Shown here: positions 4,142 to 64,000 of the stretch, piece after piece
How the letters are laid out: each line of letters begins with the position of its first letter
Numbering within the stretch: the stretch's first letter is position 1
Source: Melioribacteraceae bacterium
GTDB taxonomy: Bacteria > Bacteroidota > Ignavibacteria > Ignavibacteriales > Melioribacteraceae
DNA length: 64,000 bases
NCBI GenBank assembly: GCA_021739765.1
Contig: JAIPBD010000017.1
Location: forward strand, 42,489-106,488
Direction of reading: 5' to 3'
Made by a program: the position numbers and the translations under genes
Notes under the pieces: model-generated
The model's database searches: none
The model's input: the letters and a program-made list of their open reading frames with translations, nothing else
Told to the model about the DNA's origin: nothing

Positions 4142-6110
4142 TATTTATAGGAAGTTTAATCGTAACTTTGGTCCCGGTTCCTAAACCGGATTCCACAAAA
4201 ATCGAACCATCATGCCGTTCAATAAACTCTTTACATAAACTCAGACCTAAACCCGTCCCTTTTTCTCCCTCTGTACCTCGGTTCGATTTAATTTGTTCAT
4301 CTGTGAATAATTTGTTTTTAATCGAATCATCGATTCCAATCCCATTATCTTCTATTAAAATATAATTAAAAGCGAAATCTTTCCGAGACTCAATCCTAAT
4401 CACTCCACCTATCTTGCAAAACTTTATAGCGTTTGAAACAATATTCCGCATTATTATTTCCAACATTGCTTCATCAGCAACAAATGAGGAATTTTTAAGT
4501 ACTAACTCTATTTGAATCTTTTTCAATTCAATTTGCCTCGAAAAACTGACTAAAACATCCTCAATCATTAGGTTTAAGTTAATGTGAGTGGGTGAGTAAT
4601 CAATTTTTCCGGTTCGGAAAGCTGACAAGTAGAGTAAATTTTCGAGTAGGTGATAAGTGTTCTTAGTTAAATTGTACACATTTTGAATCGACTCATCTTT
4701 TTCAGCAGGAGAAATATCTTCACGCCGCAGCAAATCAATAGAACCAAGCAATACGTTAAACGGGCTTCGTAAATCATGCGCGATTATTGAGAACAATTTA
4801 TCCTTCGATTCATTTAATTTCGTTAATTCAATATTTAATTTACGATTTGTATGGAAACGCCAATAAATCACCAATGCGATCAAAAGAATTAGGATCAAAA
4901 CAATAAATAAAGTTTTACTCTTATTTTCCTCTAATAACAGGTTTTGATTTATAGAATCTAATTTTTGAGTAATTAAAAATCGATGCTGCACCTCGGCTAG
5001 AGTTTCAAATTGTTGCTTAGAATAGAGCGAATCATACGTATTTATAAATGTTGTGAAACTTTGCGATGCTGCTTGGAAATCATTCATATTCATATAAAAC
5101 CTTGCGTAGGTTTTGTATACATCAAGAATTTTTGTCGGCAATTCAAACTCAGTCGCTATTTTTAAGGCGGAATCCATTTCAATTTCGCCCATTTCTCTGT
5201 TATTCGTACTTGAGTATACGATCGCTTTCCCAAGTTTGTTATCAATCGTACCGAAGGGATGCGATCTTTCAATATTTAACTTTTCCGCATTTGTAAATAA
5301 TTTTAGGGCTTCTTCGTAATTTCCTTCGATCAAAAAAATACGTCCGATTCCAGTTAAACTATATGCGATGTACATTTTATTATCAATTTCCGAATGCAGT
5401 TCATACGATCGCTGGAAATATACTTTTGAAGAATCATAATTACCCATATCAAAATAAGTGAGTCCAATTTCCAACGTAGCGGAGGCGATACCTCGTTTAT
5501 CGTCTAATTTTTCCCTAATTTTAACGGCTTCGGTGAAATACTGAATTGATAGGTTATAATTTTTATTTAGTCTTTGAACTAATCCTAAATTTATAAAACT
5601 ATATGCAATACCGCGAGGTTCATTTAATTCTTGGAAGATATTCATCGATAATTCAGCGTATTCCAGCGCTAACGGTACGTTACCGGTTAAATAATATGCA
5701 TCACCAAGATTATTGTATGAATATCCGATTGTAGTTGTAATATTTGCTCTCAGACCATACTCCAACCCTTTTTGGAAGTATGGAATCGATTCCTTTATAT
5801 TATGTTTGTAGTGAATTAGCGCAACTCCAACGAAGTTATAAAACTCACCCAAATCCTCAACCATCCTAAATTGTTCACCTATTTTGATTGCTTCTTCACC
5901 TAATAAAATCGCCAGATCAGTATCCTTCTCACGGTTTAACCAACTCAATTTACTTAGTTGAATCGCTTGTTCCGTTGGCGATAATCCGTCAAGTTTTTTA
6001 TTAATACTGTCGGGTAATACTTGACCAAATGAGTCTATTGCTATAAAAACCATCAGCGTGAAAACGAGCAACAACTTGCAGATTATGGATTGAAGTAAAT
6101 TGGAACTCAA
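4134..6110 (-). CDS. TPR-repeat sensor histidine kinase
   Basis: A 658-residue paralogue of the flanking kinases on the opposite strand. It has an N-terminal signal sequence (to about residue 30, FGQ), about seven periplasmic TPRs (55-370), a transmembrane helix at 400-417, an H-box SIIAHDLRSP (His445), an N-box NIVSNAIKF and ATP-lid motifs DNGIGI and GTGLGLSL. The start codon is TTG at 6110, preceded by AAAGG at suitable spacing; the next in-frame Met would cut into the signal sequence. The gene is convergent with the upstream kinase (8-bp overlap) and divergent from the next kinase across about 200 bp. No response regulator lies nearby. Confidence 0.88.
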   Translation of the reverse strand: MSSNLLQSIICKLLLVFTLMVFIAIDSFGQVLPDSINKKLDGLSPTEQAIQLSKLSWLNREKDTDLAILLGEEAIKIGEQFRMVEDLGEFYNFVGVALIHYKHNIKESIPYFQKGLEYGLRANITTTIGYSYNNLGDAYYLTGNVPLALEYAELSMNIFQELNEPRGIAYSFINLGLVQRLNKNYNLSIQYFTEAVKIREKLDDKRGIASATLEIGLTYFDMGNYDSSKVYFQRSYELHSEIDNKMYIAYSLTGIGRIFLIEGNYEEALKLFTNAEKLNIERSHPFGTIDNKLGKAIVYSSTNNREMGEIEMDSALKIATEFELPTKILDVYKTYARFYMNMNDFQAASQSFTTFINTYDSLYSKQQFETLAEVQHRFLITQKLDSINQNLLLEENKSKTLFIVLILILLIALVIYWRFHTNRKLNIELTKLNESKDKLFSIIAHDLRSPFNVLLGSIDLLRREDISPAEKDESIQNVYNLTKNTYHLLENLLYLSAFRTGKIDYSPTHINLNLMIEDVLVSFSRQIELKKIQIELVLKNSSFVADEAMLEIIMRNIVSNAIKFCKIGGVIRIESRKDFAFNYILIEDNGIGIDDSIKNKLFTDEQIKSNRGTEGEKGTGLGLSLCKEFIERHDGSIFVESGLGTGTKVTIKLPINIK

Positions 6111-6312: not shown

Positions 6313-8586
6313 ATGAAAAAATTAGGAATTATTTACTTAGTATTAATTTCCTTTATGATCTCTGCATGTTCACAAGAACCTGATCCCACAATAAATTCCA
6401 CACTTGATGAGAAATTTGCGAATCTTCAGAATAGTTATTCCGATTCGGCAAATTTTCACAATTCTAAAGCAAAATTAATCGGGAATGAGCCAAACCCAAA
6501 CGCAAACAGATTTAAAGCACAATTGAAATATGTTGAAGGAGAATATTTCCTTCATAATTCGGAATTTTCAGCGGCAAAACAAAAGCTGGACTCGGCACTA
6601 ATTTTTGCAAACCAAGATAATGAGTTCGATATTATCGGTGAGATTTATTACAGTAAAGCCGGTTGTGAAAGGGGTCTTAATAATAACAGTCAAGCGATTA
6701 TTTTTTACAAGAATTCTGTAACTAACTTCAGCAAAACCGAAAATAAAATTAAACTCGGCCTTGCTTTAAATGGAGTAGGTTATCTTTATTGGGAATTCGC
6801 CAGATTTGATAGCGCTCTGGTTTATTTCGAAAAATCGGCTGAAGTAAAATCGAAATTACCTGATTTAGATAGCTATGCTACTACATTGAACAATATTGGT
6901 ACGGTCCACTATCATTGGGCCGGTTACGATAAAGCTTTAGACTATTTTACACGGTCTCTTGAAATTAAAAAGTTATTTGCCGAACACGACGGAACTGCTC
7001 TTATAATGGCAAATGTTGGTTTGATTTATAAGGAGACCGGACAGTACAACAAGGCACTTGAAACATTTAATGAATGCCTGCTTTATGCAGCCAAGGAGCC
7101 TTATAATACTACTTACGGCTATATCTATCATAATTTTGCATCGGTCTACCTTGCGCAAGTAAAGATTGACTCCGCTAAATATTATTTTAATAAATCTTTT
7201 CATGAATACGATTTAGCCGAAAATGACCCGGGAAAGATTATAGCGACAATGGGTTTGGGTGAATGTTTTCTTCAGCAAGGTGATATCGAAACCGCTGAGA
7301 GCCATTTTAGAACTATGCTCGATTTAGCTGGAAAAACAAACAATTCACTTCGAATCGCTGAGGCATATAAATTATTAGGAACAATAGAGGCTGAGAAAAA
7401 TAATACAAGCGGGGCTCAACTCTATTTTACGAAAAGTATTGAGATTGGGAAGAGTATTAATAAAGTAGAATTGCTGATGGATAATTATTTTTTACTCTCA
7501 ACACTGCTGGAAAAAGAAGAAAAGATCGGCTCCGCGTTTAACGCATTTAAAGAATATGAAAAATATAAAGAGATTATACGTAATAAAAATGTTGATCGAG
7601 AAATGGCCAAACTCCAGTATAGCATTGAATCCGAGAAACTTCTAAATACTATAGAAACCCAAAAATACGAAAATGAAAAACAATCCATATTTTTATATGG
7701 TTTGACGAGTTTTTCAATAATATTGATGGGTTTGATTTACGCATTATTTCGAGCTACCAGCCGAATGCGTTTACAAAATAAATCACTTGCAAATAATTAT
7801 ATATTGATAGAAAATCAAAAAGAAAAGTTAGAAAAGTTAAATTATGAGTTGAAAGAAGCTAATATTACAAAAGATAAATTTTTCTCAATTATTGCACATG
7901 ATCTAAAAAGTCCGTTTCAAATACTATTGTCAAATAGTGAATTTATTCTGGAAGATTTAAAAGAAATTCAAAATGAAGAAATATTACTACTCGCAGAAGG
8001 GATTCATGAAACCGCACGAAATACCTACAAACTTTTAGACAACTTACTTCAGTGGGCATTCGTTCAAAAGGGCAAAGTGGTTATGAAGATAGAACAAATT
8101 TCTTCCGGCGAGTTAGTCGCTGATTCTATATCAAGTGTGAAGGGTTCAGCAGATAAAAAGAATATTAGTTTGAATACAATTGCGGAAACAGATTGCAATT
8201 TCAAAACGGATAAAAATATGCTTGAATTTGTTCTCCGTAATTTAATATCAAACTCAATTAAATTTACTCCGGTAAATGGCCATGTGGATATTATAATCAA
8301 ATCTGATTCAGATTTTGTAGTCTTTAAAATACGTGACAATGGAATTGGAATGAATGAACAAAAAATCTCGGAACTATTTGATTTGAGTAAAACATCATCT
8401 CAACCGGGTACACAGAACGAAGCCGGAACAGGACTCGGACTTATTATTGTGAAAGAATTTATGGATAAACTTAACGGCAATATTGAAATTCAAAGCAAGG
8501 AAGGGCATGGAACCACTTTTACTTTGCAAATACCAAATCAATCGACGATTATTCTTGATAACACCTTGAATTCAATTCCAGCTTGA
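6313..8586 (+). CDS. TPR-repeat sensor histidine kinase with lipoprotein-type N-terminus
   Basis: 757 residues from the ATG at 6313, chosen over the TTG directly before it because AAGGA lies 11 bases upstream. The N-terminus ends in a lipobox (MISAC, Cys19), unlike its two paralogues. Then come about eight TPRs, a long coiled coil, a transmembrane helix near 458-478, H-box SIIAHDLKSP (His529), N-box NLISNSIKF, DNGIGM and GTGLGLII. A lipidated N-terminus together with an internal membrane helix would tether both ends of the TPR domain to the inner membrane; this is an inference. It is the last of three related kinases and has no partner regulator next to it. Confidence 0.85.
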   Translation: MKKLGIIYLVLISFMISACSQEPDPTINSTLDEKFANLQNSYSDSANFHNSKAKLIGNEPNPNANRFKAQLKYVEGEYFLHNSEFSAAKQKLDSALIFANQDNEFDIIGEIYYSKAGCERGLNNNSQAIIFYKNSVTNFSKTENKIKLGLALNGVGYLYWEFARFDSALVYFEKSAEVKSKLPDLDSYATTLNNIGTVHYHWAGYDKALDYFTRSLEIKKLFAEHDGTALIMANVGLIYKETGQYNKALETFNECLLYAAKEPYNTTYGYIYHNFASVYLAQVKIDSAKYYFNKSFHEYDLAENDPGKIIATMGLGECFLQQGDIETAESHFRTMLDLAGKTNNSLRIAEAYKLLGTIEAEKNNTSGAQLYFTKSIEIGKSINKVELLMDNYFLLSTLLEKEEKIGSAFNAFKEYEKYKEIIRNKNVDREMAKLQYSIESEKLLNTIETQKYENEKQSIFLYGLTSFSIILMGLIYALFRATSRMRLQNKSLANNYILIENQKEKLEKLNYELKEANITKDKFFSIIAHDLKSPFQILLSNSEFILEDLKEIQNEEILLLAEGIHETARNTYKLLDNLLQWAFVQKGKVVMKIEQISSGELVADSISSVKGSADKKNISLNTIAETDCNFKTDKNMLEFVLRNLISNSIKFTPVNGHVDIIIKSDSDFVVFKIRDNGIGMNEQKISELFDLSKTSSQPGTQNEAGTGLGLIIVKEFMDKLNGNIEIQSKEGHGTTFTLQIPNQSTIILDNTLNSIPA

Positions 8587-8808: not shown

Positions 8809-9024
8809 ATGGCAGAGCGCAAACAAGGATCTGTTAAATGGTTTAACAGTACAAAAGGTTTTGGTTTTATTCAACAAGAAAGCGGCGAGGATGATGTATT
8901 CGTACATTTCAAGTCTATTATTGGTGATGGCTACAAATCATTAGAAGAAAATGATAAAGTTGAGTATTCTGTTACTGAAGGCGCAAAAGGTTTACAAGCG
9001 TCTGATGTGAAATTAATCAACTAA
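8809..9024 (+). CDS. Cold-shock domain protein (CspA family)
   Basis: 71 residues, the usual length for a single cold-shock domain. The RNA-binding motifs are present: [12 protein letters not shown] (RNP1) and DDVFVHF (RNP2). Such proteins bind single-stranded RNA and DNA and melt RNA structure, acting as chaperones in the cytoplasm. The start has a good ribosome site (AAAGGAG, 11 bases upstream). It is a single-gene unit with a leader of over 100 nt containing a tetraloop hairpin and a terminator directly after the stop. Which csp paralogue it is cannot be told. Confidence 0.95.
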
Positions 9025-9046
9025 GATTAGATTAATTTTATTATTG

Positions 9047-9075
9047 AATCCCGGCAATTTGTCGGGATTTTTTAT
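9047..9075 (+). terminator. Intrinsic terminator of the cold-shock gene
   Basis: The arms AATCCCG and CGGGATT pair perfectly around a 9-nt loop and are followed by a T-rich run, 23 bases after the stop codon. Confidence 0.85.
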
Positions 9076-9163
9076 TTTAAATAGTCTGTCTCCAATATCT
9101 TAATTCCTCTGTTTCACATTCCACAAACAAAATTTCATCTAATCTTCCTTTCTGAGATAAAAT

Positions 9164-9589: not shown

Positions 9590-11068
9590 ATGAATATTCT
9601 TCTCGTATATCCACTGTATCCGGATACTTTTTGGAGCTTTAAACACGCTCTGAAATTTGTGTCGAAAAAAGCAACTTTTCCTCCTCTCGGTTTATTAACC
9701 GTATCTTCAATGCTACCGACTGAATGGAATCAAAAACTGATCGATATGAATACATGTAATCTTTCAGATAATGATATTTTGTGGGCGGATTATGTTTTTA
9801 TAAGTGCGATGTCGACTCAGAGCGCTTCGACAAATCTTGTAATTAATCGATGTAAAGAGATAAATACCAAAATAGTTGGCGGAGGTCCGCTATTTACGAG
9901 CAGCCCGGCCTATTTTGATCATGTCGAACATTTGGTTTTAGATGAAGCGGAAATCACAATCCCTCAGTTCCTCGCAGATTTGAAAAAGGGGGAGACAAAG
10001 CATAGATATAGTACGGATGAATGGGCCGACATTGAATCTACCGTCCTTCCAAATTGGAAACTGGTCTCACTGAAAAATTATTCATCGATGAATATTCAGT
10101 ATTCTCGTGGCTGCCCTTATGACTGTGAATTTTGCGATATAACGGTTCTGTATGGGAGAAATCCTAGAACTAAAACAAAACAGCAAGTATTGGATGAACT
10201 CGATGCACTTTATTATTCAGGCTGGAAAGGACCCGTATTTTTTGTTGACGATAATTTTATTGGAAACAAAAATAAACTCAAGAAGGAGATACTTCCGGCA
10301 ATAATTGATTGGAATACAAGGAATAATTACCCGTTTTATTTTAATACGGAAGCTTCAATCAATCTTGCAGATGATTCTGAGCTGATGAAATTAATGGTAA
10401 AAGCCGGATTTGAAGCAGTTTTTATTGGTATTGAATCACCAAACGAAAAAAGTTTAGTCGAATGTAACAAATCTCAGAACCGGAATCGTGATCTTATCAA
10501 AAGCATAAATAAAATACAAAGTTTCGGTTTGGAGGTTCAGGGTGGATTTATTGTGGGATTCGACAATGACAGTTCAAATATTTTTGAAAAGTTGAAAAAT
10601 TTTATTCAATCGAGTGGAATAGTTACTGCGATGGTTGGATTGTTAAACGCTCCAAAGGGCACTAAACTTGAGAAAAGATTTAAAGAAGAGGGGAGATTGT
10701 TAAATGATTTTAGCGGGAATAATACAGATTTCTCTATTAATTTTATCCCGCGCATGAAAACAGATGATCTAATCAACGGTTATCATAAATTGATAAATTC
10801 TTTGTACGATCCCAAATATTATTATGAACGTGTTATGAAGTTTCTCCGGGATTTCGAACCTAAAACGGAGAAAGTATTTCATCTCAATTCGAATTATATC
10901 TTCGCTCTTTTTAAATCGATGTTTAGATTAGGAATTTTAGGGAAGGAAAGATTTCATTATTGGCATTTATTTATTTGGTCTTTGTTCCGTAAACCGAAAC
11001 TTTTCTCACTTGCCATTTTGTATAGTATTTACGGGTATCACTTTAGAAAGATTTCGCAAAATGTTTAG
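9590..11068 (+). CDS. B12-binding domain radical SAM protein
   Basis: 492 residues, cytoplasmic. Residues 1-150 form a cobalamin-binding-like Rossmann domain (start MNILLVYPLYPDTFW), though without the classical DxHxxG. The radical SAM domain carries the iron-sulfur motif CPYDCEFC (CxxxCxxC) in YSRGCPYDCEFCDITVLYGR, a signature shared with class B methylases and the DUF4070 group that includes hopanoid methylase HpnP. A DUF4070-like region follows. Such enzymes methylate or rearrange unactivated carbon; the substrate here is unknown. The gene stands alone, with GGGAG before the ATG. Hopanoid methylation is possible but no hopanoid genes are nearby. Confidence 0.8.
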   Translation: MNILLVYPLYPDTFWSFKHALKFVSKKATFPPLGLLTVSSMLPTEWNQKLIDMNTCNLSDNDILWADYVFISAMSTQSASTNLVINRCKEINTKIVGGGPLFTSSPAYFDHVEHLVLDEAEITIPQFLADLKKGETKHRYSTDEWADIESTVLPNWKLVSLKNYSSMNIQYSRGCPYDCEFCDITVLYGRNPRTKTKQQVLDELDALYYSGWKGPVFFVDDNFIGNKNKLKKEILPAIIDWNTRNNYPFYFNTEASINLADDSELMKLMVKAGFEAVFIGIESPNEKSLVECNKSQNRNRDLIKSINKIQSFGLEVQGGFIVGFDNDSSNIFEKLKNFIQSSGIVTAMVGLLNAPKGTKLEKRFKEEGRLLNDFSGNNTDFSINFIPRMKTDDLINGYHKLINSLYDPKYYYERVMKFLRDFEPKTEKVFHLNSNYIFALFKSMFRLGILGKERFHYWHLFIWSLFRKPKLFSLAILYSIYGYHFRKISQNV

Positions 11069-56860: not shown

Positions 56861-57525
56861 TGAGCAAAAGAGCTTTAATTTTAGCGAATGGGAAATCTCC
56901 CAAAAAAGAAGAAATCATTTACTTGATGGATAATGGCTGGGATTTCCTTATCTGTGCGGATGGCGGAGCGAATTCTGCCAGGAAAATGGAATTAGTACCG
57001 AAGGTGATAATAGGCGATCTCGATTCAATCAGTCCTAAAACTAAATTGTATTTTTCGGGTAAAAGCGAATTTATTCATCTGCTCCGTCAAAATGATACCG
57101 ATGTTGAGAAGGCAATAAAGTATTTAATTCAGCACGACTTTCACGAGGCGATTTTACTTGGTGGAACCGGAAATCGTTTAGATCACGGATTTTGTAACAT
57201 CGGAATTTCGTTAAAATTTTACGATAGTTTGAAATTATACATTCTTCACCGTGATTCATTCTTAATTCCCATTGAAGGCGAAAATACATTCGAAACTCAA
57301 ATCGGAGAAACAATCTCAATTTATGGAATCGACAAACAAACATATTTTACATCCTCAGGATTGAAATATGCTCTGGATAAATCTTCTCTTCCTTTTGGCG
57401 TGCGTGAAAGTACCAGCAACGAAGCAATCAAAAACCGGGTAACTTTAACAGTTGAAAAAGGAAGGGGACTGATGGTTAGGGAGTATAAATCCTTAAAGGA
57501 AAATGATTACTTTAGAAACTCTTGA
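56860..57525 (+). CDS. Thiamine pyrophosphokinase
   Basis: 221 residues. Converts thiamine to TPP with ATP in the cytoplasm. Family motifs: CADGGANSARKM near residue 32, GDLDSI, QNDTDVEKAI and GGTGNRLDHGFCNI; the C-terminal beta domain carries LPFGVRESTSNEAI, close to the usual ...SNE. The start overlaps the receptor stop by one base, and the last 23 bases overlap the symporter gene, so all three are coupled. It completes a transport-and-trap salvage route. The protein is of the prokaryotic single-domain type. Confidence 0.93.
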   Translation: MSKRALILANGKSPKKEEIIYLMDNGWDFLICADGGANSARKMELVPKVIIGDLDSISPKTKLYFSGKSEFIHLLRQNDTDVEKAIKYLIQHDFHEAILLGGTGNRLDHGFCNIGISLKFYDSLKLYILHRDSFLIPIEGENTFETQIGETISIYGIDKQTYFTSSGLKYALDKSSLPFGVRESTSNEAIKNRVTLTVEKGRGLMVREYKSLKENDYFRNS

Positions 57526-58903
57526 TGTAGCGATAATATTCCTTTTCTTTGCTGTTGTTCTTGGAATTGGCCTCTATTCGTCGCGAAGTTCGGATAAATC
57601 GAAAGAAGGTTATTTACTCTCGGGACGAAATCTCACGCTTCCTTTATTTGTACTTACAAATGTCGCGACATGGTACGGCGGAATTCTCGGAGTTGGTGAA
57701 TTTACTTACCGCTACGGATTGGTAAGTTGGTTTACCCAAGGATTGCCTTACTATATTTTCGCGATAATCTTCGCGTTTCTTCTCGCCCCAAAAATCAGAG
57801 AAACATCGTTATTCACAATTCCAGAAAAAATAACCCAAACCAGCGGCAGAACCGCTGGAATTTTTGCCTCGCTTTTGGTCTTTTTACTTGTAAATCCCGC
57901 TCCTTACATTTTAATGCTTGGAACATTGCTCTCGCTTATTTTTGAAATATCGCTTTTTTATTCGGTTCTAATATCAGCTTTTTTGTCTTCGATATATCTT
58001 TTTTGGGGCGGATATAAATCCGATGTTCGCACAGACGCTTTCGAATTTTTCGTGATGTTTCTCGGTTTTATAATTCTACTCTTTTTTGTGCTTCAAACGT
58101 CAGATTTTCCGGAAACGCTAATCGAACAATTGCCCGAATCCCACAAGACTTTAACCGGCGGAACTTCGGTTACATTTATTTTGGTTTGGTTTTTAATAGC
58201 TTTGTGGACTTTTGCCGATCCGGGTTTTCATCAACGAAGTTATGCCGCAAAAACTCCTAAAATTGCAAAGTGGGGGATTATAATATCTGTGGGATTTTGG
58301 ATGATATTCGACTTCTTAACTACAACTACAGGGCTGTTCAGCAGGGTTTTGCTGCCAAATCTTGAACAGCCGATTTATGCCTTTCCGCTCCTTGCCGAAG
58401 CTGTTCTTTCGTCCGGATTTAAAGGATTATTCTATGCCGGATTGTTCGCGACGATTATCTCAACTCTTAACAGCTTTCTCTTTTTAAGCGCAACCACATT
58501 CAGCCGCGATTTTATGATTACAGCGTTACGCAAGGACGAATCAAAAACGAACAATTATACAAGACTCGGATTGTTGATCAGTCTGATACTTTCTATAATA
58601 ATTGCGCTAAAATTTCAATCGGTTATCGAAATCTGGTATATCGTCGGTTCGATCTGCATTCCCGGATTAGTAGCTGTTATTACCGGAGCATATTTCCCAA
58701 AATTCAGGATTTCTCCAAATTTATCCGTTATTCAACTAATCGGATCGGTAGTTTTTTCCATATCGTGGTTTTTTATTCGTGGGAATTTACCCTCCGAATC
58801 TTTCCTCTCAGAAATCGAACCGATGATTGTTGGGATATTTTTTGTCGCGGTGGTTTATTTTGTGGGGAGAAAAGTGGATCGACGCAGTGCGGGCAGAGTT
58901 TAG
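57503..58903 (+). CDS. SSS-family sodium:solute symporter, predicted thiamine or precursor transporter
   Basis: 466 residues with about 12-13 transmembrane helices. The family pattern is visible in FFAVVLGIGLYSSR, a YLLSGRNLTLPLF loop and NVATWYGGILGVGEF in the unwound first core helix. The gene overlaps thiamine pyrophosphokinase by 23 bases and lies under the TPP riboswitch, so thiamine or a pyrimidine precursor is the predicted cargo. Bacteroidota usually use PnuT here. An SSS-type candidate (ThiV) has been linked to THI-box regulons in other bacteria as I recall. Substrate is inferred from context alone. Confidence 0.85.
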   Translation: MITLETLDVAIIFLFFAVVLGIGLYSSRSSDKSKEGYLLSGRNLTLPLFVLTNVATWYGGILGVGEFTYRYGLVSWFTQGLPYYIFAIIFAFLLAPKIRETSLFTIPEKITQTSGRTAGIFASLLVFLLVNPAPYILMLGTLLSLIFEISLFYSVLISAFLSSIYLFWGGYKSDVRTDAFEFFVMFLGFIILLFFVLQTSDFPETLIEQLPESHKTLTGGTSVTFILVWFLIALWTFADPGFHQRSYAAKTPKIAKWGIIISVGFWMIFDFLTTTTGLFSRVLLPNLEQPIYAFPLLAEAVLSSGFKGLFYAGLFATIISTLNSFLFLSATTFSRDFMITALRKDESKTNNYTRLGLLISLILSIIIALKFQSVIEIWYIVGSICIPGLVAVITGAYFPKFRISPNLSVIQLIGSVVFSISWFFIRGNLPSESFLSEIEPMIVGIFFVAVVYFVGRKVDRRSAGRV

Positions 58904-59225
58904 CGTTCGGCGAACAGTTTACAGCTTACAGCGTTTTAGTGTAGAACGTAGAACGTAAAGCAGAATGAATTGAGCTGAGCCAGGTAATAAGTTCAGAGTA
59001 AATTACTAGGTTGTTGCTGCATTTTACCCGGAAGGCAAGGAGCACTCCTTGCCATTGAATTAGTGTAATCTTTTCCGAAGTTTTGTTAATCCCAAATTGG
59101 ATAGTAAGAAGGAGAAAGTGGCGTGGATTGGTCGTCAAGCTACGTTGTGTGCCGAGTTCATGTGTCAATCCATGGGCTTGGAAAACCGAGAAATTCTGTA
59201 ATTAATAATTGATTAAAATAAGGAA
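58904..59225. other. Non-coding stretch with a 20-bp palindrome
   Basis: No convincing gene. It opens with short repeats (GTAGAAC twice near 58941-58954). At 59034-59053 lies GGCAAGGAGCACTCCTTGCC, arms of 9 bp around CA, without a T run. The composition differs from the dense coding DNA on the left and marks the beginning of the accessory segment. An 80-codon minus-strand frame (58926-59168) has no ribosome site or recognisable sequence and is left out. Confidence 0.5.
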
Positions 59226-59227
59226 AG

Positions 59228-59358
59228 CACAACATCGTATATAAAAAATTGCTTATTTTAGATTAAATAAAGGTCGTTGCACGTTTAATACATCTGAATA
59301 TTCTTCGGAAAATCCTCACATACAAACTCGCAACTTTCCCTAAACAAACACGTTGCGG
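59228..59358 (+). repeat. attC-like cassette spacer, copy 1
   Basis: Outer ends CACAAC (59228) and CGTTGCGG (59351) are inverted relative to each other (CAAC/GTTG). Inside is a second inverted pair, GTTGCACGTTTA (59276) and AAACTCGCAAC (59324), about 36 bases apart. The right part, CCCTAAACAAACACGTTGCG then GTCAATTAAA, recurs in shortened form in copy 2, and the inner pair recurs in copy 3. The 131-bp length is within the attC range. The DUF3500 gene starts 21 bp after it. Confidence 0.5.
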
Positions 59359-59378
59359 TCAATTAAAAAAGGAAAACT

Positions 59379-60443
59379 ATGAATAAATCTATATTGCTTA
59401 TACTGTTTATAATCATGGGGAATTACTCGTTTGGTCAGACGGCAGAAAGCCTTAATGATGCAACCAATCAATTTCTATCTACTTTAAGTCAAGAAGAAAT
59501 AGAATTGGTGAGCTTGGATTTTGAAGATACTTTGAGAACGGAATGGACAAATCTTCCTATTGGGTTACAAAAAAGGAACGGAATAAGATTTGGCCATCTG
59601 TCGGAGAAAAGTAAGATTTCTTTTCATCATTTATTGACTACACTATTTAGTTCTCAAGGATATTTAAAAACAACAAGTATAATGGCACTTGATGATGTAC
59701 TAAACGAAGTATATAAAGAGGCTTACGATAGAAAAATGATTCCTGATGAAGTTTACCAGGAAGTACGAGCATTGAATTGGGATTATGGAAATTACTTTAT
59801 TGCAATTTGGGGTAAGCCAAATTTAAAAGAGCCTTGGGGATTAAAATTTGAAGGGCATCATATTTCAATTAATTTATCAATTGTAAAGGACAAAGTCTCA
59901 CTTACGCCTCTTTTCTTAGGAACAGACCCGGCGGAAGTCACTATAACTAAATATTCGGGACTGCGAGTGTTAAGCAAAGAGGAAGATTACGGTTTGTTAT
60001 TGATAAACTCATTAAATGAAGAACAAAAACAAATTGCCACCTTGAGTCAAGAAGTTCCTGGAGATATAATTACTAATCCATCCAACAAACAAAGGATTAT
60101 TGAGTACCAAGGAATCAAAGCAAGTGAATTAACCACAAAGCAGAAAGATATATTAATGATGCTAATTAAGGAATATATCAACAACCTTGAGCATGAGAAA
60201 TCGCATAAATATTTGAGCAAAATTGAAGAGTCTGGAATTGATGAAATATATTTTGCTTGGATAGGAAGTTATGAAATACGAAAACCAAACTACTATATCA
60301 TTAATGGTCCTAATTTCATAATTGAATATGATAACGCTGGATTCAATAACGACGGAAACCACATACATTCTATTTGGAGAGAAAAGGGGAATGATTTTGG
60401 TGAAGACATTTTGAAAACTCACTATTTAAAACATAAACACTAA
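59379..60443 (+). CDS. DUF3500 family exported protein
   Basis: 354 residues with a signal peptide (ending SFGQ at about 20) and GGAAA before ATG. Recognisable DUF3500 landmarks: RTEWTNLPIG, RFGHLSEKSK, a GYLK segment, IAIWGKPN...PWGLKFEGHH and LTPLFLGTDPAEV with the conserved HH. The function of DUF3500 is unknown. The gene is flanked on both sides by related attC-like spacers, has no operon partner and appears to be one cassette. The same-strand, single-gene arrangement supports acquisition by cassette insertion. Confidence 0.85.
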   Translation: MNKSILLILFIIMGNYSFGQTAESLNDATNQFLSTLSQEEIELVSLDFEDTLRTEWTNLPIGLQKRNGIRFGHLSEKSKISFHHLLTTLFSSQGYLKTTSIMALDDVLNEVYKEAYDRKMIPDEVYQEVRALNWDYGNYFIAIWGKPNLKEPWGLKFEGHHISINLSIVKDKVSLTPLFLGTDPAEVTITKYSGLRVLSKEEDYGLLLINSLNEEQKQIATLSQEVPGDIITNPSNKQRIIEYQGIKASELTTKQKDILMMLIKEYINNLEHEKSHKYLSKIEESGIDEIYFAWIGSYEIRKPNYYIINGPNFIIEYDNAGFNNDGNHIHSIWREKGNDFGEDILKTHYLKHKH

Positions 60444-60451
60444 AATTGTAC

Positions 60452-60515
60452 TTAACAATGTATATTCAATAATGCTCTCTATCGGTCGCACTCTGCATAA
60501 ACAAACCGTTACCGG
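60452..60515 (+). repeat. attC-like cassette spacer, copy 2
   Basis: Outer ends TTAAC (60452) and CGTTACCGG (60507) are inverted (TAAC/GTTA), where copy 1 has CAAC/GTTG. It shares AACAATGTATAT and CATAAACAAACCGTTACCGG, CAATTAAA with copy 1 but lacks the inner arms, giving 64 bp. Lies between the DUF3500 gene and the membrane protein gene. Confidence 0.5.
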
Positions 60516-60539
60516 CAATTAAAGACGAAAAATTAAAAA

Positions 60540-61172
60540 ATGGAAAAAGCATACAAAAACTTAGGATACATCTTTATACTTCTAATTCCTTTGACATTTC
60601 TGGGTTTCTTAAAAACCTATTTTAATCAAATTCCAACATTCAAGGAAAATATTACCCCTTATATTCATATTCATGCGATAATTGCTTCAATCTGGATATT
60701 AGTGCTTATAACCCAACCGCTTTTAATAAGAAATAGGAAAAATAAATTACACAAGAAGATTGGAAAAATTTCTTACGTACTCTTTCCGCTTCTTATTTTA
60801 TCATTTATTCCACAGATGATAAGGATAATAAATTCGGACACTCCGCATTTTCTGTTTTTTCCTTTAGCAGATAGCATTTCATTAACGATATTTTATTCAT
60901 TAGCAATCTATTATCGGAAAACTTTGTCCAAACATATGCGTTACATGATTGGAACTGCAATTGTTTTCTTAGGACCTACTATTGGACGAATTGGACCATT
61001 AATCTTGGGATTATCCGAAAATGTTACTCAAAATTTACAATACGGATTAATTTACCTTATCCTGATGGGACTAATAGTTCTCGACAGAAAAAACGGGAAG
61101 GATTATAAACCATATTTGTTGATAATAACCATCTGGATAATTCACCAAATCATTTTCAATATGATATTTTAA
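60540..61172 (+). CDS. Small polytopic membrane protein of unknown function
   Basis: 210 residues, about six transmembrane helices. Conserved-looking His residues occur in YIHIHAIIASIW and NKLHKKIGK, and a short LIRNRKNK loop separates helices 2 and 3. The pattern resembles DUF2306-like or heme-binding cytochrome b561-like membrane proteins of Bacteroidota, but I cannot assign it. It sits alone between two cassette-type spacers with no strong ribosome site (GACGAAAAATTAAAAA before ATG). Leu/Ile-rich composition and AT-rich codons resemble its cassette neighbour more than the core genes. Confidence 0.75.
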   Translation: MEKAYKNLGYIFILLIPLTFLGFLKTYFNQIPTFKENITPYIHIHAIIASIWILVLITQPLLIRNRKNKLHKKIGKISYVLFPLLILSFIPQMIRIINSDTPHFLFFPLADSISLTIFYSLAIYYRKTLSKHMRYMIGTAIVFLGPTIGRIGPLILGLSENVTQNLQYGLIYLILMGLIVLDRKNGKDYKPYLLIITIWIIHQIIFNMIF

Positions 61173-61190
61173 TAATGAATAAAACAGTTA

Positions 61191-61320
61191 CTAACCAAGT
61201 ATAAAAATAATTGATCAATTTTGGGCTTAACCAAGGGTAGTTGCAAGTTTATGAGGTCTGATTTTCCTTTGTAAAATCTTCGCGCTTAAACCCGCAACTA
61301 TTCTAATTCGAGATTGTTTT
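61191..61320 (+). repeat. attC-like cassette spacer, copy 3
   Basis: Begins CTAACCAAGTATAAAAATAA, matching the left part of copy 1 (AACATCGTATATAAAAAAT). The inner inverted pair GTTGCAAGTTTA (61240) and TAAACCCGCAAC (61287) corresponds to that of copy 1 and pairs at 10 of 12 positions. The expected right-hand GTT end is not clear, so this copy may be decayed. It separates the membrane protein gene from the esterase remnant. Confidence 0.45.
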
Positions 61321-61342
61321 GTGTCATATTTAGAATAAAAAC

Positions 61343-61730
61343 ATGAAGCCATTATTATTTATTTTTATCCGTTTTTTTTACAACATTTGGTTTTGCTCAA
61401 ATCCAAAGTAACATTATCGCAGACAAAAACGACACACTTGAATCTAAAATTCTTAATGAAATAAGACCCCTTTAGATTCATCTTCCCTATAGCTATTCCG
61501 CTGATAAACGATATCCCGTTGTGTATTTATAATACGTTGATAGGAATTTTGGAAATACGTATTCAATAATTGAGCACTTAAGTATGGGTCTCGATCCTAT
61601 CTGGCCTGAAATGATAATTGTGCGAATTCCTAATACGAATCGCAACAGGAATTTAACGCCTTATAAACCATCTTTTGATCTTAATATGCCAGAATATATG
61701 GTAGAAGAATCTGGTGGAGGCAAAGCATAG
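61343..61730 (+). pseudogene. Decayed esterase (PF00756-like) fragment
   Basis: The ATG at 61343 begins a signal peptide (MKPLLFIFIRFF) that changes frame at a T8 tract (61372-61379) and continues TTFGFAQIQS. The second frame then carries IHLPYSYSADKRYPVVYL, an interrupted DRNFGNTYSIIEHL, and PEMIIVRIPNTNRNRNLTPY, the conserved N-terminal half of the alpha/beta-hydrolase esterase family (normally VYLLDG...IPEMIVVGI.NT.R..DLTP). It has one frameshift and two in-frame stops (TAG near 61474, TAA near 61528) and breaks off at GGGKA, before the region with the nucleophile. Clearly a dead remnant. Confidence 0.8.
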
Positions 61731-61749
61731 CCGGAAAAAAATCACATCA

Positions 61750-61875
61750 GGGCATGAGAGAATGATTCCAGGGCAGGGGAAAATGACTCCAGGGCATGAG
61801 AAAATGACTCCAGGGCATGAGAAAATGATTCCAGGGCAGGGGAAAATGACATCCGGACATGAGGGAATGACTCCA
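61750..61875. repeat. 21-bp tandem repeat, six units
   Basis: Six contiguous 21-bp units start at 61750, 61771, 61792, 61813, 61834 and 61855, each beginning GGGCATGAG or GGGCAGGGG (the last GGACATGAG) and ending in ATGAYTCCA or a close variant. Both strands are open: plus reads a GHEKMTP heptad, minus a FSCPGVI heptad. Differences between units change amino acids in either reading, so no coding strand is favoured. There are no unique spacers, so it is not a CRISPR array. It immediately follows the esterase remnant. Confidence 0.9.
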
Positions 61876-61897
61876 GAGCAATGGAATCTCATTCTCG

Positions 61898-62277
61898 TTC
61901 GGCGGAATCTCCAGATCCTCGGATAAGATTACATTTTTGTTCGATTACATCTCCTTTTTATCAGATGGATGCATTACGGCGTTCTACAATAATTCGTTTT
62001 CGTTAAACGATGCGGCAAATTATTCGGTGAATCTTCGGAATTGTTCGAAGGTTCGTCGGGGCGCTTCAATAAGTGGACTTTTTTATTCAATATAAGCTCA
62101 CAGTTCTTCAATGGGTTCGCCGGTTTATTCATTGCATGCAGAGAATGCTTCAATGGCTTGACGATTTAAAACAATGGGAACTCAGCTTCATTCAGTGGAA
62201 CCTCCGGATTATTCAAGGAGGCCCCGGGATCGTTCAGCGGAAATTCGGATTTATGCGACGAGGCGGCAGGATTGTAA
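61898..62277 (+). repeat. Degenerate 21-bp-period tract encoding an F-x-G-x-S-G-L-like heptad
   Basis: TTC codons recur exactly every 21 bases at 62023, 62044, 62065, 62086, 62107, 62128 and 62149, and again at 62191, 62212 and 62233; earlier ones at 61898, 61940 and 61982 are in register after a 1-bp slip. In that frame the units read FGESSEL, FEGSSGR, FNGFAGL, FSGTSGL, FKEAPGS, FSGNSDL. One in-frame TAA occurs (62167-62169), and the frame closes with TAA exactly one unit boundary on, at 62275. It looks like a worn minisatellite or the ruin of a heptapeptide-repeat protein. No family recognised. Confidence 0.75.
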
Positions 62278-62613
62278 AATGAATAAACGCTTTGACTATG
62301 CGGAAACGGGGATTGTTTCCCGAAAAGTGTAATTCGCGGACGCAATATATCATTTTATAATTTTATTAGACAAACTTGTATTAAATATGGAATACCCGTA
62401 ATTTCTAATTGTTCATTCAGTTTAGTTCGAATAAATAAAGACTACGATTATTTTGATTACTGAAAATAACATAAAACCCCGGCCCCAAATACTTGAACAA
62501 GTATATACATCCCCGATTAAAAATTTTATGACAGAAAACTTTAGAAAAAAAATAGACCGACGGATAAATTTGATAATAATTTCCGCGCAAGATATCTATG
62601 GCGTTTGTTATGC

Positions 62614-62656
62614 TGTCACGGTCTTAGAATTCATCTTTGAATTTGATACCGTGACA
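62614..62656. repeat. Inverted repeat, copy 1 (9-bp arms, 25-nt centre)
   Basis: TGTCACGGT (62614-62622) and ACCGTGACA (62648-62656) are perfect inverted arms around 25 bases; the centre itself holds GAATTCA/TGAATT, so the whole can fold further. There is no T run. Matches the second copy 86 bp downstream in arm sequence except one position. Confidence 0.85.
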
Positions 62657-62698
62657 CTAATTCTCGATGGAACACAGAAGCGGTTTGGTGCTCTGTTT

Positions 62699-62743
62699 GT
62701 GTCATGGTTACGATTATGTCGATAGCTATTATGACCATGACAC
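62699..62743. repeat. Inverted repeat, copy 2 (10-bp arms, 25-nt centre)
   Basis: GTGTCATGGT (62699-62708) and ACCATGACAC (62734-62743) are perfect arms around exactly 25 bases. Compared with copy 1 the left arm has C to T and the right arm the compensating G to A, while the centre sequence is different. Confidence 0.85.
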
Positions 62744-62946
62744 CCACGGAAGAATAATGTTTGCAAGTTTGTAGAAACGATATTTATTCGGTTTTACCAT
62801 CCGATTTAAAGTCTGTATTGCGAGAATAAGTTGTTGTTAACTATCAATTTAGAAAGTTTTATAAGGGATAAAATAAATCACAGAAGAAGAAATAACGTCG
62901 GCAATTGCTTCTCCATTATCCCGGAAGTAAATCGGCTTATATAGTA

Positions 62947-62954
62947 GTTAGGCA
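62947..62954 (+). other. GTTAGGC-type attC/core site on the left of the last gene
   Basis: GTTAGGCA matches the integron core site GTTRRRY exactly and lies 30 bp before the GTG start of the 283-residue gene, the usual place for the recombination point at the 5' end of a cassette. A possible left partner (GTTAAC near 62837) would make a site of about 115 bp, but pairing is poor. Confidence 0.4.
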
Positions 62955-62983
62955 TTTTATTAAATAATATTCTAATTCAATAA

Positions 62984-63835
62984 GTGAAAAAAAATCATAA
63001 AAAGAGATTTGTAAGAAAATTAACAGATCGTGAGATATTATATCTGGAAGAATTAGAGAAATATATCCAAGTTCTGAAGGTTACTATGTTAATTTCTCTA
63101 AATCAACATGGGATAGAAACCACTGGCAGAGGAATTAGAGCAAGCAAAATATTTACAAGACAAACATTGTTAGGAATGAGTTTTAGAAAAATATTGCCGA
63201 TACCAAGTAAATATAAGCATCCAGAAGATGAATTGTGGGATATATGCTCTATCGCTTCTTTATCGCGCAACATAATGGAAGGTTATATTAGTTTATTATT
63301 TTTTGGGATTGAGAAAGTTTCTGAGGAAGAGGCAGAACTTAGATTTTTTTTGGGGCAATATCATCGTAATAGAGAATGGTATCAAATTCGAAAAAGGTTC
63401 GGAGAAAATGAAAATAAATTGCACGAATTTGTAGATGGATTAAAAGCGCAGAAGCAACGTTTGAAAAACCATCCATACCTTTCAAAATTGACAAGAGTAC
63501 AACAAAATAAAGTTTTACAAGGTCTTGAAATGTACAAAACGAAAGAAGATTTCGAGAATGAAAATAAAGTATGTACAAGACTAAGGGGCGATTATCAAGT
63601 ACTTTCTAATTTGATACACCCATTACCTTTATCTATTGAAAGAATGAATAATGAGAGTGGGAGAGGAATCGGAAGTAAACATGATATAACCTATTGTATT
63701 TTAAGCCTTGTTATCGCAAGAAGATATCTAGCTGCATCAACAATTGGATTCTCTGATTTTTTCTATAGTTATATTGGAAAAAAGTTTGAAAAGGATTTAA
63801 ACACTATAAGATCATTTACATTACCTGAAGATTAG
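62984..63835 (+). CDS. Protein of unknown function, cassette-borne
   Basis: 283 residues from a GTG start (AATAAGTGAAAAAA context, no obvious ribosome site). Soluble and helical, with no signal peptide or membrane segment. The pattern SIASLSRNIMEGYISLLFFG in the middle, followed by a charged stretch and DYQVLSNLIHPLPLS, faintly resembles DUF5677-type proteins, but I cannot confirm it. It is framed by GTTAGGCA 30 bp upstream and TGCCTAAC 24 bp downstream, which fits a single-gene integron cassette. Low GC and frequent AAA/AGA codons set it apart from core genes. The function is unknown. Confidence 0.75.
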   Translation: MKKNHKKRFVRKLTDREILYLEELEKYIQVLKVTMLISLNQHGIETTGRGIRASKIFTRQTLLGMSFRKILPIPSKYKHPEDELWDICSIASLSRNIMEGYISLLFFGIEKVSEEEAELRFFLGQYHRNREWYQIRKRFGENENKLHEFVDGLKAQKQRLKNHPYLSKLTRVQQNKVLQGLEMYKTKEDFENENKVCTRLRGDYQVLSNLIHPLPLSIERMNNESGRGIGSKHDITYCILSLVIARRYLAASTIGFSDFFYSYIGKKFEKDLNTIRSFTLPED

Positions 63836-63859
63836 TTTTAAATACATTCTAATCGAATG

Positions 63860-64000
63860 TGCCTAACATCTTAAATAAGTATAAAGTCAAGTAGATATAG
63901 ATTTTCAACACAACAAAAGTTGTAAAAAACGTTCTTTGATATACTGATATATCTAATAAGAATAACCTGCCAATAAATATATTTTAATTGTCAAAATAGA
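63860..64000 (+). other. Left half of a putative attC site at the window edge
   Basis: TGCCTAAC (63860-63867) matches the R'' consensus of attC (RYYYAAC) and is the inverse of the GTTAGGCA at 62947. A small hairpin ACAAC-AAAA-GTTGT lies at 63910-63923. The matching GTTRRRY end was not found before the window ends, so the site is unproven. No gene is visible in these bases. Confidence 0.4.

What the first reader, a model, noticed from the sequence alone, without database searches (positions are those of the whole stretch)
59228..61320. Integrase-less array of single-gene cassettes separated by related attC-like spacers
Three spacers (59228-59358, 60452-60515, 61191-61320) share end sequences and an inner inverted pair (GTTGC..GTTTA with AAAC..GCAAC in copies 1 and 3). 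Outer ends of copies 1 and 2 covary: CAAC/GTTG against TAAC/GTTA. Each intact spacer precedes one plus-strand gene of unknown function with no operon partner. Integron cassettes have exactly this form, but no integrase or attI is seen here and the core sites are not the classical GTTAGGC. It could be a Bacteroidota-type cassette family or another mobile-gene system.
Basis: partly seen in the sequence, partly recalled or inferred. Interest (0 to 1): 0.75.

Follow-up and report, generated by a model that had tools for sequence, protein, structure and literature searches.

The report
Relic gene cassettes of unrecognised integrons
The spacers are worn-down recombination sites of a gene-capturing system (an integron) found in many Bacteroidota, whose enzyme lacks the part by which integron enzymes have so far been recognised.

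Summary
Spacers 1 and 3 belong to a ~124-bp attC-like family; spacer 2 is probably a short relative. A covariance model built without the window copies finds 1 and 3 at 115 and 105 bits and 1-118 copies in each of 25 flavobacterial genomes. There the unit is gene plus downstream spacer: bases beyond AAC/GTT pair across the gene at >=6 of 7 positions in 118 of 186 cases, against 5 of 186 within a spacer. Arrays lie beside one kind of tyrosine recombinase: 81 sites in 20 such loci, 0 in 20 Xer loci, with an attI-like GTT junction in 9 of 14. The bottom strand folds better in 143 of 146 sites. Two canonical traits are missing: the IntI-specific insertion and extrahelical bases; conserved A·C (bottom-strand G·T) positions stand instead. 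The recombinases group apart from IntI and Xer. The window holds a small decayed integrase-less cluster behind a native gene; its copies fold no better than shuffles. Reader partly right. Ten library searches listed no description of this lineage. New variant of a known kind; recombination itself is not shown.

The parts
59231..59354 (+). Site 1: attC-like site (AAC to GTT), L stem decayed at stem positions 3 and 6 (counted by hand)
   Evidence: covariance model R1 match 59221-59364, 115 bits, E 5.8e-25; folds no better than shuffles
59379..60443 (+). Gene 1 of the cluster, DUF3500 protein
   Evidence: Pfam PF12006, 305 bits; not found in the 34 other genomes of 35 relatives searched
60454..60510 (+). 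Site 2: probable short attC-like site, right arm damaged
   Evidence: end motifs found on the + strand only at sites 1 and 2; not found by R1 or stem scan; short sites with such ends exist in other fetched loci
60540..61172 (+). Gene 2, membrane protein, weakly DUF2306-like
   Evidence: below the Pfam cut-off; a 50% identical homologue in a same-family genome is followed 62 bases on by an attC-like site of another subtype, E 1.7e-18
61193..61318 (+). Site 3: attC-like site, L stem decayed at positions 2, 5 and 16 (counted by hand)
   Evidence: R1 match 61183-61328, 105 bits, E 1.5e-22
61319..62946 (+). Decayed stretch: no ORF of 60 aa or more listed on the + strand between 61173 and 61713, and a 21-bp tandem repeat at 61748-61880
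62948..63867 (+). Fourth unit: gene 62984-63835 between GTTAGGCA and TGCCTAAC ends
   Evidence: 5 consecutive complementary bases beyond GTT/AAC; 4 of 3000 random placements in the window reach this

Best explanation
The window holds a small, partly decayed cluster of integron-type gene cassettes without an integrase, behind a native gene of its genome. Its sites belong to a system that is intact elsewhere in the phylum. There, single genes, each with its own ~124-bp (or ~45-65-bp) attC-like site behind it, are strung in one direction next to a dedicated tyrosine recombinase. A cassette circle carries one site, whose R'' end pairs with the TTRRRY start of the same cassette. The bottom strand of the site folds into a long hairpin with an unpaired spacer (3 against about 6 bases) between R and L boxes and a large terminal structure. 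The recombinase exchanges it at G^TT of an attI-like site beside its own gene or of another site. Unlike canonical integrons, the recombinase lacks the IntI-specific insertion and the sites lack extrahelical bases; strand polarity is carried instead by conserved A·C (bottom-strand T·G) positions 7 and 12 of the stem and by the unequal spacers. Shown by computation: homology, arrays, cassette ends, adjacency, orientation, junction, strand-biased folding, missing insertion, missing bulges, tree. Inferred: that this recombinase catalyses the exchange, that the substrate is the single bottom strand, and that the wobble positions are read as strand marks.
For: R1 model on the window. End complementarity across the gene: 118 of 186 pairs at >=6 of 7, 5 of 186 within spacers, mean 5.16 against a maximum of 3.01 in 2000 permutations. 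81 sites in 20 integrase loci, all on the integrase strand and 80 of 81 downstream of it, 0 in 20 Xer loci. A stem-only scan gives 74 sites in 16 of 20 integrase loci, 30 in 13 of 20 further ones (6 of these 20 chosen because a site was known nearby; 8 of the other 14 have one), 0 in 20 Xer loci. attI-like junction in 9 of 14, 2.8% in the null. Bottom strand more stable in 143 of 146; both-side changes in 25 cells against 4.8 shuffled. Homologous cassettes between different neighbours. Genome-level association: strong integrase match in 22 of 32 site-bearing and 86 of 363 other genomes. KGxKDR-to-LRHSFA distance 66-71 in 51 of 52 special recombinases, 108-109 in 2 of 4 IntI. No bulge preferred in 362 of 368 sites; A·C at stem position 7 in 311 and at 12 in 322 of 363, C·A in 0. 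Tree. Native flank: symporter gene at 49-59% identity in 28 of 33 other family genomes.
Against: The window copies fold no better than shuffles (z -0.75 to -1.65; -0.22 to -0.97) and fail the stem scan. Site 2 is seen by neither model. Of the window units only the fourth has matching ends; cassettes 1 and 2 do not (read by hand). Genes 1 and 2 have neighbouring homologues in two other genomes without a site between, so they may be a functional pair. Around gene-2 homologues 0 of 19 loci have an R1 or stem-scan site; a subtype profile, run on 3 of them, found one. 10 of 32 site-bearing genomes lack a strong integrase match, among them the own genome. None of the 4 same-family recombinase loci (L270-L273) shows a site by R1 or stem scan, though two lie at contig ends. 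Two of 20 integrase loci have no R1 site and one has its only site upstream. In one search, 5 of 14 loci show no matching junction. Two of the five covariation measures do not clearly exceed shuffles: pairs with both-side change 3 against 2.0 (46 of 500 shuffles reach it), further pair types 3 against 3.0. A sub-threshold TIGR02249 match is not specific: all 14 control genomes have one. The grouping of the recombinases is moderately supported (92/76). No recombination was observed.
Confidence: 0.84

Rival explanations
1. These are ordinary integron cassettes (a CALIN) of canonical IntI integrons whose integrase lies elsewhere or was lost; the neighbouring insertion-less recombinase is incidental.
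For: A paper reports that an attC site from Polaribacter phage P12002L recombines with attI1 through IntI1 (PMC9892861, passages), and my scan finds same-type sites in that phage. IntI-type integrons are recorded in Bacteroidota (PMC8618304, PMC9024848, passages).
Against: 0 of 25 site-bearing flavobacterial genomes, nor the own genome, passes the integron-integrase cut-off; sites lack extrahelical bases; arrays start at the insertion-less recombinase with an attI-like junction.
Confidence: 0.08
2. The spacers are a dispersed hairpin repeat (MITE, REP or terminator-like) that happens to sit between genes.
For: Copies are dispersed in some genomes, e.g. five places in G103; strong hairpins.
Against: Ends pair across the gene, not within the repeat; homologous genes bounded at GTT in different neighbourhoods; one orientation relative to the long recombinases.
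Confidence: 0.03
3. Host XerC/XerD mobilise the cassettes, as they do Xer-exploiting mobile elements, and the special recombinase does something else.
For: Sites without extrahelical bases resemble the CTX-phage stem that XerCD use (PMC4792948, passages).
Against: 0 sites near 20 Xer genes against 81 near 20 special recombinases; the attI-like junction lies beside the special recombinase.
Confidence: 0.05

Closest known systems
Integrons with IntI, chromosomal superintegrons such as those of Vibrio
   Same: One-gene cassettes in one direction, ends complementary across the cassette, attC-like bottom-strand hairpins with spacer and terminal structure, integrase and attI at one end, G^TT junction
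   Different: Recombinase lacks the IntI-specific insertion; sites lack extrahelical bases; separate group in the tree
Treponema-type integrons with the integrase in cassette orientation
   Same: Integrase in the orientation of the cassettes, as with the long recombinases here (PMC3607928, passages)
   Different: Treponema enzymes are described there as intI; here the insertion is missing. The short recombinases here have the usual divergent layout
CALIN (cluster of attC sites lacking an integrase)
   Same: The window cluster: at least two sites under 4 kb apart, no integrase found in the genome
   Different: Sites are of the variant type and decayed; no published attC detector was run
attC sites of Polaribacter phage P12002L
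   Same: Same end motifs and stem in sites that I found in that phage; one site reported to recombine with attI1 through IntI1 (PMC9892861, passages)
   Different: The passages treat them as attC sites of a CALIN, and the text does not hold the words Bacteroid- or Flavobacter- (0 occurrences); I could not tell which of the sites that I found is the tested one
XerA/XerCD recombinases
   Same: NCBI's XerA-type model named 'site-specific tyrosine recombinase/integron integrase' is passed by 3 of 4 tested members; the best-scoring solved relatives by sequence are XerA-type structures
   Different: Apart from Xer in the tree (Xer clade 100/99), linked to arrays, IntI-like SPLD/NPLD tail in most of the aligned proteins

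Membership tests
Integron (canonical, IntI) | Integrase with the IntI-specific additional domain (patch III / I2 helix) | tested here: not met
   KGxKDR-to-LRHSFA distance 66-71 in the 51 of 52 special recombinases that could be measured, 108-109 in the 2 of 4 IntI that could be measured; TIGR02249 cut-off passed in 0 of 25 genomes and by 0 of 4 proteins, against 508.6 bits for IntI1; VchIntI 2a3v aligns in two pieces around the gap
Integron (canonical, IntI) | Cassette ends (R'' and TTRRRY start) complementary over about 9-11 bases | tested here: met
   118 of 186 consecutive pairs at >=6 of 7 bases beyond AAC/GTT; in the window only the fourth unit
Integron (canonical, IntI) | attC folds as a bottom-strand hairpin with unpaired central spacer and terminal structure | tested here: met
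   Bottom strand lower in 143 of 146 sites, left spacer 3 in 357 of 368; not met by the window copies
Integron (canonical, IntI) | Two to three extrahelical bases in the L'' arm | tested here: not met
   No bulge preferred in 362 of 368 sites that have GTATA/TATAC stem ends
Integron (canonical, IntI) | attI next to the integrase with a G^TT junction | tested here: met
   9 of 14 loci with a downstream site, in other genomes; the own genome has no such integrase
Integron (canonical, IntI) | Integrase recombines attC with attI | not testable with these tools
   No bench data for this recombinase
[quoted passage not shown]
   Two R1 sites about 1.8 kb apart; no integrase above the Xer level in the own genome; IntegronFinder itself not run
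Dispersed hairpin repeat (MITE/REP) | The repeat itself, not gene plus repeat, is the mobile unit | tested here: not met

The most novel reading that the evidence does not exclude
Bacteroidota carry a whole lineage of integrons, with up to about a hundred or more cassette sites per genome, that surveys miss because they require the IntI insertion. Its I2-less integrase and bulge-less attC sites, with G·T wobble as the strand mark, would be the long-imagined intermediate between Xer recombination and canonical integrons, or a parallel solution to recognising folded single-strand sites.
Probability: 0.6. Interest if true: 0.92.

Novelty: new variant of a known kind. Interest (0 to 1): 0.8.

Why it matters
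Integrons are defined and searched for by an integrase domain, and canonical attC sites are recognised through flipped-out bases. Here both the domain and the flipped-out bases are absent, while the other integron traits that I could test are present in intact relatives. That makes testable how folded single-strand recombination works without them and how integrons arose from Xer-like enzymes. It also points to a large pool of mobile genes in marine flavobacteria and their phages: 0 of 10 cassette proteins tested (of 17 listed) has a Pfam match at E 0.001.

Tried and rejected
Rfam gave one match at E <= 1 in 9 kb, a snoRNA below its gathering score. The 3'-end pattern of spacer 2 alone gave chance-level hits in the own genome and in 296 phylum genomes; the six foreign ones printed showed no matching left end by eye. 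DNA searches with spacer 2 in plasmids gave one mycoplasma match at E 0.8, and spacer 1 gave none in plasmids. Folding the three window copies alone gave no excess over shuffles. Window genes 1, 2 and 62984-63835 had no tblastn match in the roughly 2.0 Mb of loci fetched by then. For the Xer rows the insertion measure worked in only 1 of 22 (my motif was too strict), so I make no claim for Xer from it. One search drops pairs under 250 or over 2500 bases apart and duplicates by sequence. One search kept 152 sites (146 unique) with both end motifs and left the rest out. A1 holds 17 of 20 integrases: two with a short start call (L186, L197) and one near-copy in the same genome (L188) were left out; all 20 are in the tree. 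The 20 loci were my pick of the best-listed matches, taken before I looked for sites there, not all of them. Of the 20 loci, six (L274-L279) were picked because searches had shown a site nearby. One search used 18 loci, of which 14 had enough sequence and a detected site. The integrase counts are handles that I copied from the lists (integrase taken as 265 bits or more). The structure model (pLDDT 81, pTM 0.53) matches XerA and VchIntI best, then the Tn1549 integrase and XerH, and does not decide between them. The pattern used to collect the sites fixed many of the invariant pairs counted.
Full report
WHAT IS IN THE WINDOW. The window is the last 64 kb of contig C18 of a 4.5-Mb genome (99.8% complete) and ends with the contig. 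Spacers 1 and 3 share a 59-base core, GTTGC-NN-GTTT-37-AAAC-NN-GCAAC. Searched as a pattern, the core is in 10 of 395 genomes of the phylum; read backwards as a control it is in 2 (G166, G168). Three of the ten (G186, G304, G371) hold unrelated sequence; flanks of the others show a conserved ~124-bp element from AACANNGTATA to TATAC-NNNNN-CGTT between different genes. Of these, 121 copies at least 150 bases from a locus end, 120 of them unique, align in register and conservation falls off at the two ends.

INDEPENDENT CONFIRMATION. A covariance model (R1) built from 59 copies, none from the window, finds spacer 1 (115 bits, E 5.8e-25) and spacer 3 (105 bits, E 1.5e-22) on the + strand, and otherwise only the reverse strand of spacer 3 (E 0.0016) and a match at E 1.9. 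Spacer 2 is not found by it. Its end motifs occur on the + strand of the window only at spacers 1 and 2, and short sites with the same ends exist in other fetched loci, so I call it a probable damaged short site. The own genome has one more site on contig C27 (50.5 bits) that also passes the stem scan. R1 finds 1-118 copies in each of 25 flavobacterial genomes picked from the scan, with only 122 candidates scored per genome, and matches at E <= 1e-5 in 32 of 395 phylum genomes.

THE MOBILE UNIT IS GENE PLUS DOWNSTREAM SITE. In an integron the R'' end of a site pairs with the start of its own cassette, which in the array lies behind the previous site. I tested this in 186 consecutive pairs of sites, distinct by sequence, from the loci fetched by then. 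Complementarity beyond AAC/GTT across the gene is 0.84, 0.75, 0.75, 0.76, 0.72, 0.73, 0.60 at positions 1-7. Within a spacer it is 0.60, 0.34, 0.42, 0.35, 0.33, 0.33, 0.42, and for random pairs 0.55, 0.37, 0.37, 0.30, 0.30, 0.32, 0.39. Six or seven of seven match in 118 of 186 pairs across genes and in 5 of 186 within spacers; the mean of 5.16 exceeds all 2000 permutations (maximum 3.01). Of 193 unique cassettes the longest ORF lies on the array strand in 170, on the other in 11, and 12 have none of 50 aa. Fifteen homologous cassette pairs from different loci were found. In 9 of 15 the alignment begins at base 1 of at least one cassette, in 5 of 15 it spans one cassette from first to last base, and in 10 of 15 neither neighbour aligns; the largest neighbour alignments are 127 and 144 bases. 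Examples: Xanthomarina and Winogradskyella (92.7% over 399 columns), Lacinutrix and Polaribacter (92.3% over 391, from base 32 of one), Formosa and Lacinutrix (90.4% over 1346, from base 13), and two contigs of one Lacinutrix genome (98.3% over 464); names.

THE INTEGRASE. In each of the 25 genomes the integron-integrase model TIGR02249 has sub-threshold matches, typically two pieces of one ORF of about 290-440 aa in the part of the list that was shown, and none passes the 265-bit cut-off; all 14 control genomes also have sub-threshold matches. Around 20 such ORFs R1 finds 81 sites at E <= 1e-4 in 18 loci, all 81 on the integrase strand and 80 downstream of it; L184 (contig ends just behind the gene) and L188 have none. 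Around 20 XerC/XerD-like ORFs of these genomes it finds 0 in 358 kb. A scan that uses only AAC, GTT and a stem gives 74 sites in 16 of 20 of the first set and 0 in the 20 Xer loci, with 0 and 3 in their shuffles. In a second set of 20 recombinase loci from across the phylum it gives 30 sites in 13, 0 in shuffles. Six of this set were picked because a site was known nearby; of the other 14, 8 have a site: all 4 from the own order, 2 of 3 from the own class, 2 of 3 from elsewhere in the phylum, and 0 of 4 from the own family, two of which lie at contig ends. Several shorter recombinases (about 270-335 aa, no N-terminal extension) face away from the array, the classical layout (L274-L278, L280, L286). 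Site-bearing genomes carry a strong integrase match more often than others: 22 of 32 against 86 of 363 (Fisher p 4e-7).

AN attI-LIKE JUNCTION. In 9 of 14 loci a GTT 30-160 bases behind the integrase stop codon is followed by bases that match the end of the first cassette at 6 or 7 of 7, against 2.8% of 178 swapped pairings. In most of the 9 it is preceded by TATAAC-like or TATATAC-like sequence (not in L190); similar sequence can be seen by eye in L180, L185, L188, L189, L194 and L195.

SITE STRUCTURE AND STRAND. Folded as DNA, the bottom strand is more stable in 143 of 146 unique sites, the two window copies included (mean -22.3 against -19.4 kcal/mol), and lies further below shuffles (z -4.3 against -3.6 in 40 sites). 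In alignment A2, 25 cells change on both sides of a pair against 4.8 in shuffles and the covariation score exceeds all 500 shuffles; but the number of such pairs (3) is reached by 46 of 500 and the number of further pair types by 439 of 500. A 16-pair stem is paired in 58-59 of 59 sequences at every position if bottom-strand G·T is allowed, whereas the top strand has fixed A·C mismatches at two positions. Over 363 long sites A·C stands at stem position 7 in 311 and at position 12 in 322, and the reverse C·A in none. A single-base bulge improves pairing by two or more in only 6 of 368 sites, so the extrahelical bases that canonical attC sites carry (PMC2727003, passages) are absent in these sites, which were collected by their GTATA/TATAC stem ends. 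The window copies 1 and 3 have lost 2 and 3 of 16 stem pairs (counted by hand) and fold no better than shuffles (z -0.75 to -1.65; -0.22 to -0.97): they look decayed.

WHAT THE RECOMBINASE IS. The distance from KGxKDR to LRHSFA is 66-71 (median 66) in 51 of 52 special recombinases and 108-109 in 2 of the 4 IntI; the rest did not fit my motif. The solved VchIntI aligns in two pieces around the missing stretch, while IntI1 aligns to it in one piece. In a tree of 79 recombinases Xer (22 rows, 100/99) and IntI (4 rows, 100/99) are clades and the 52 special ones form a group (92/76) next to IntI plus one IS91-neighbour integrase (98/77); these last groupings are moderately supported and some branches are long. 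NCBI's model NF040815, 'site-specific tyrosine recombinase/integron integrase', is passed by 3 of 4 members tested, and TIGR02249 by none of the four. All 17 aligned proteins keep the catalytic arginines, histidines and tyrosine (the roles are recalled knowledge).

THE WINDOW CLUSTER IN ITS GENOME. The gene before the cluster (57503-58903) is native: 28 of 33 other family genomes have it at 49-59% identity (33 of 34 with the own one have some match). Gene 1 is in none of the 34 other genomes among 35 relatives. Gene 2 has homologues in 27 of 394 other phylum genomes. One, 50% identical, in a same-family genome that also has a strong recombinase match with stop codons in it (G066), is followed 62 bases on by an attC-like site of another subtype (E 1.7e-18). 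But R1 and the stem scan find no site in any of 19 homologue loci, and the subtype profile was run on only 3 of them. Against the single-gene reading, homologues of genes 1 and 2 lie side by side in G118 and, in the other order, in G076, with no site between: they may work together. The last gene (62984-63835) has matching ends (GTTAGGCA and TGCCTAAC; 4 of 3000 random placements do as well). The own genome has no recombinase above the Xer level (best match E 2.5e-54), but the contig ends beside the cluster.

WHAT IS KNOWN. Ten searches of an open-access library brought no description of this lineage in their listings; most subscription papers and all preprints are not held there. Integrons as such are recorded in Bacteroidota (PMC8618304 and PMC9668308, passages). 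IntegronFinder 2.0 reports only In0 elements in Bacteroidetes earlier and then one complete integron in Salinibacter, besides those in Chlorobi and Ignavibacteriae (PMC9024848, passages). An older survey found intI in the Bacteroidetes/Chlorobi group but kept only matches with the IntI additional domain (PMC2426708, passages), which would exclude these enzymes. A Tenacibaculum genome paper reports no integrons by IntegronFinder (PMC10013915, passages); that is a different genome from the three Tenacibaculum ones here, which have 44-46 sites each (G396, G412, G416). An attC site of Polaribacter phage P12002L was reported active with IntI1 (PMC9892861, abstract and passages), and my scan finds same-type sites in that phage; so single sites of this kind have been called attC before. 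[quoted passage not shown] this lineage lacks that domain and already has cassettes. That link is my inference.

Noticed in passing
window 61748-61880: Tandem repeat of 21 bp (6.3 copies, 63-bp higher order) in the decayed stretch behind site 3
   Followed up: no
L169 (IMG/VR contig) 8934-9077 and 9757-9903; L294 4991-5135 (Winogradskyella phage Peternella_1): Sites of the same family lie in phage or viral contigs, so phages may carry these cassettes
   Followed up: partly
L297 and L305: Homologues of the DUF3500 gene and of the DUF2306-like membrane protein are neighbours in two other genomes in either order, a possible functional pair
   Followed up: partly
L213 (G401:C45) and L214 (G405:C20): In two Lacinutrix genomes a XerD-like gene lies on the same contig within about 10 kb of the special recombinase
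   Followed up: no
L180-L199, residues 1 to about 100 of the long recombinases: N-terminal stretch with an invariant W and no Pfam match in the two long members tested, absent from the short subgroup
   Followed up: no
L268 (Dinoroseobacter plasmid) 168-1040: An integrase beside an IS91 transposase groups with IntI in the tree on a long branch
   Followed up: no
L252 (G000:C27) 4786-4927 and 6648-6789: A second place in the window's own genome with attC-like sites of another subtype, one of them with an intact stem
   Followed up: partly
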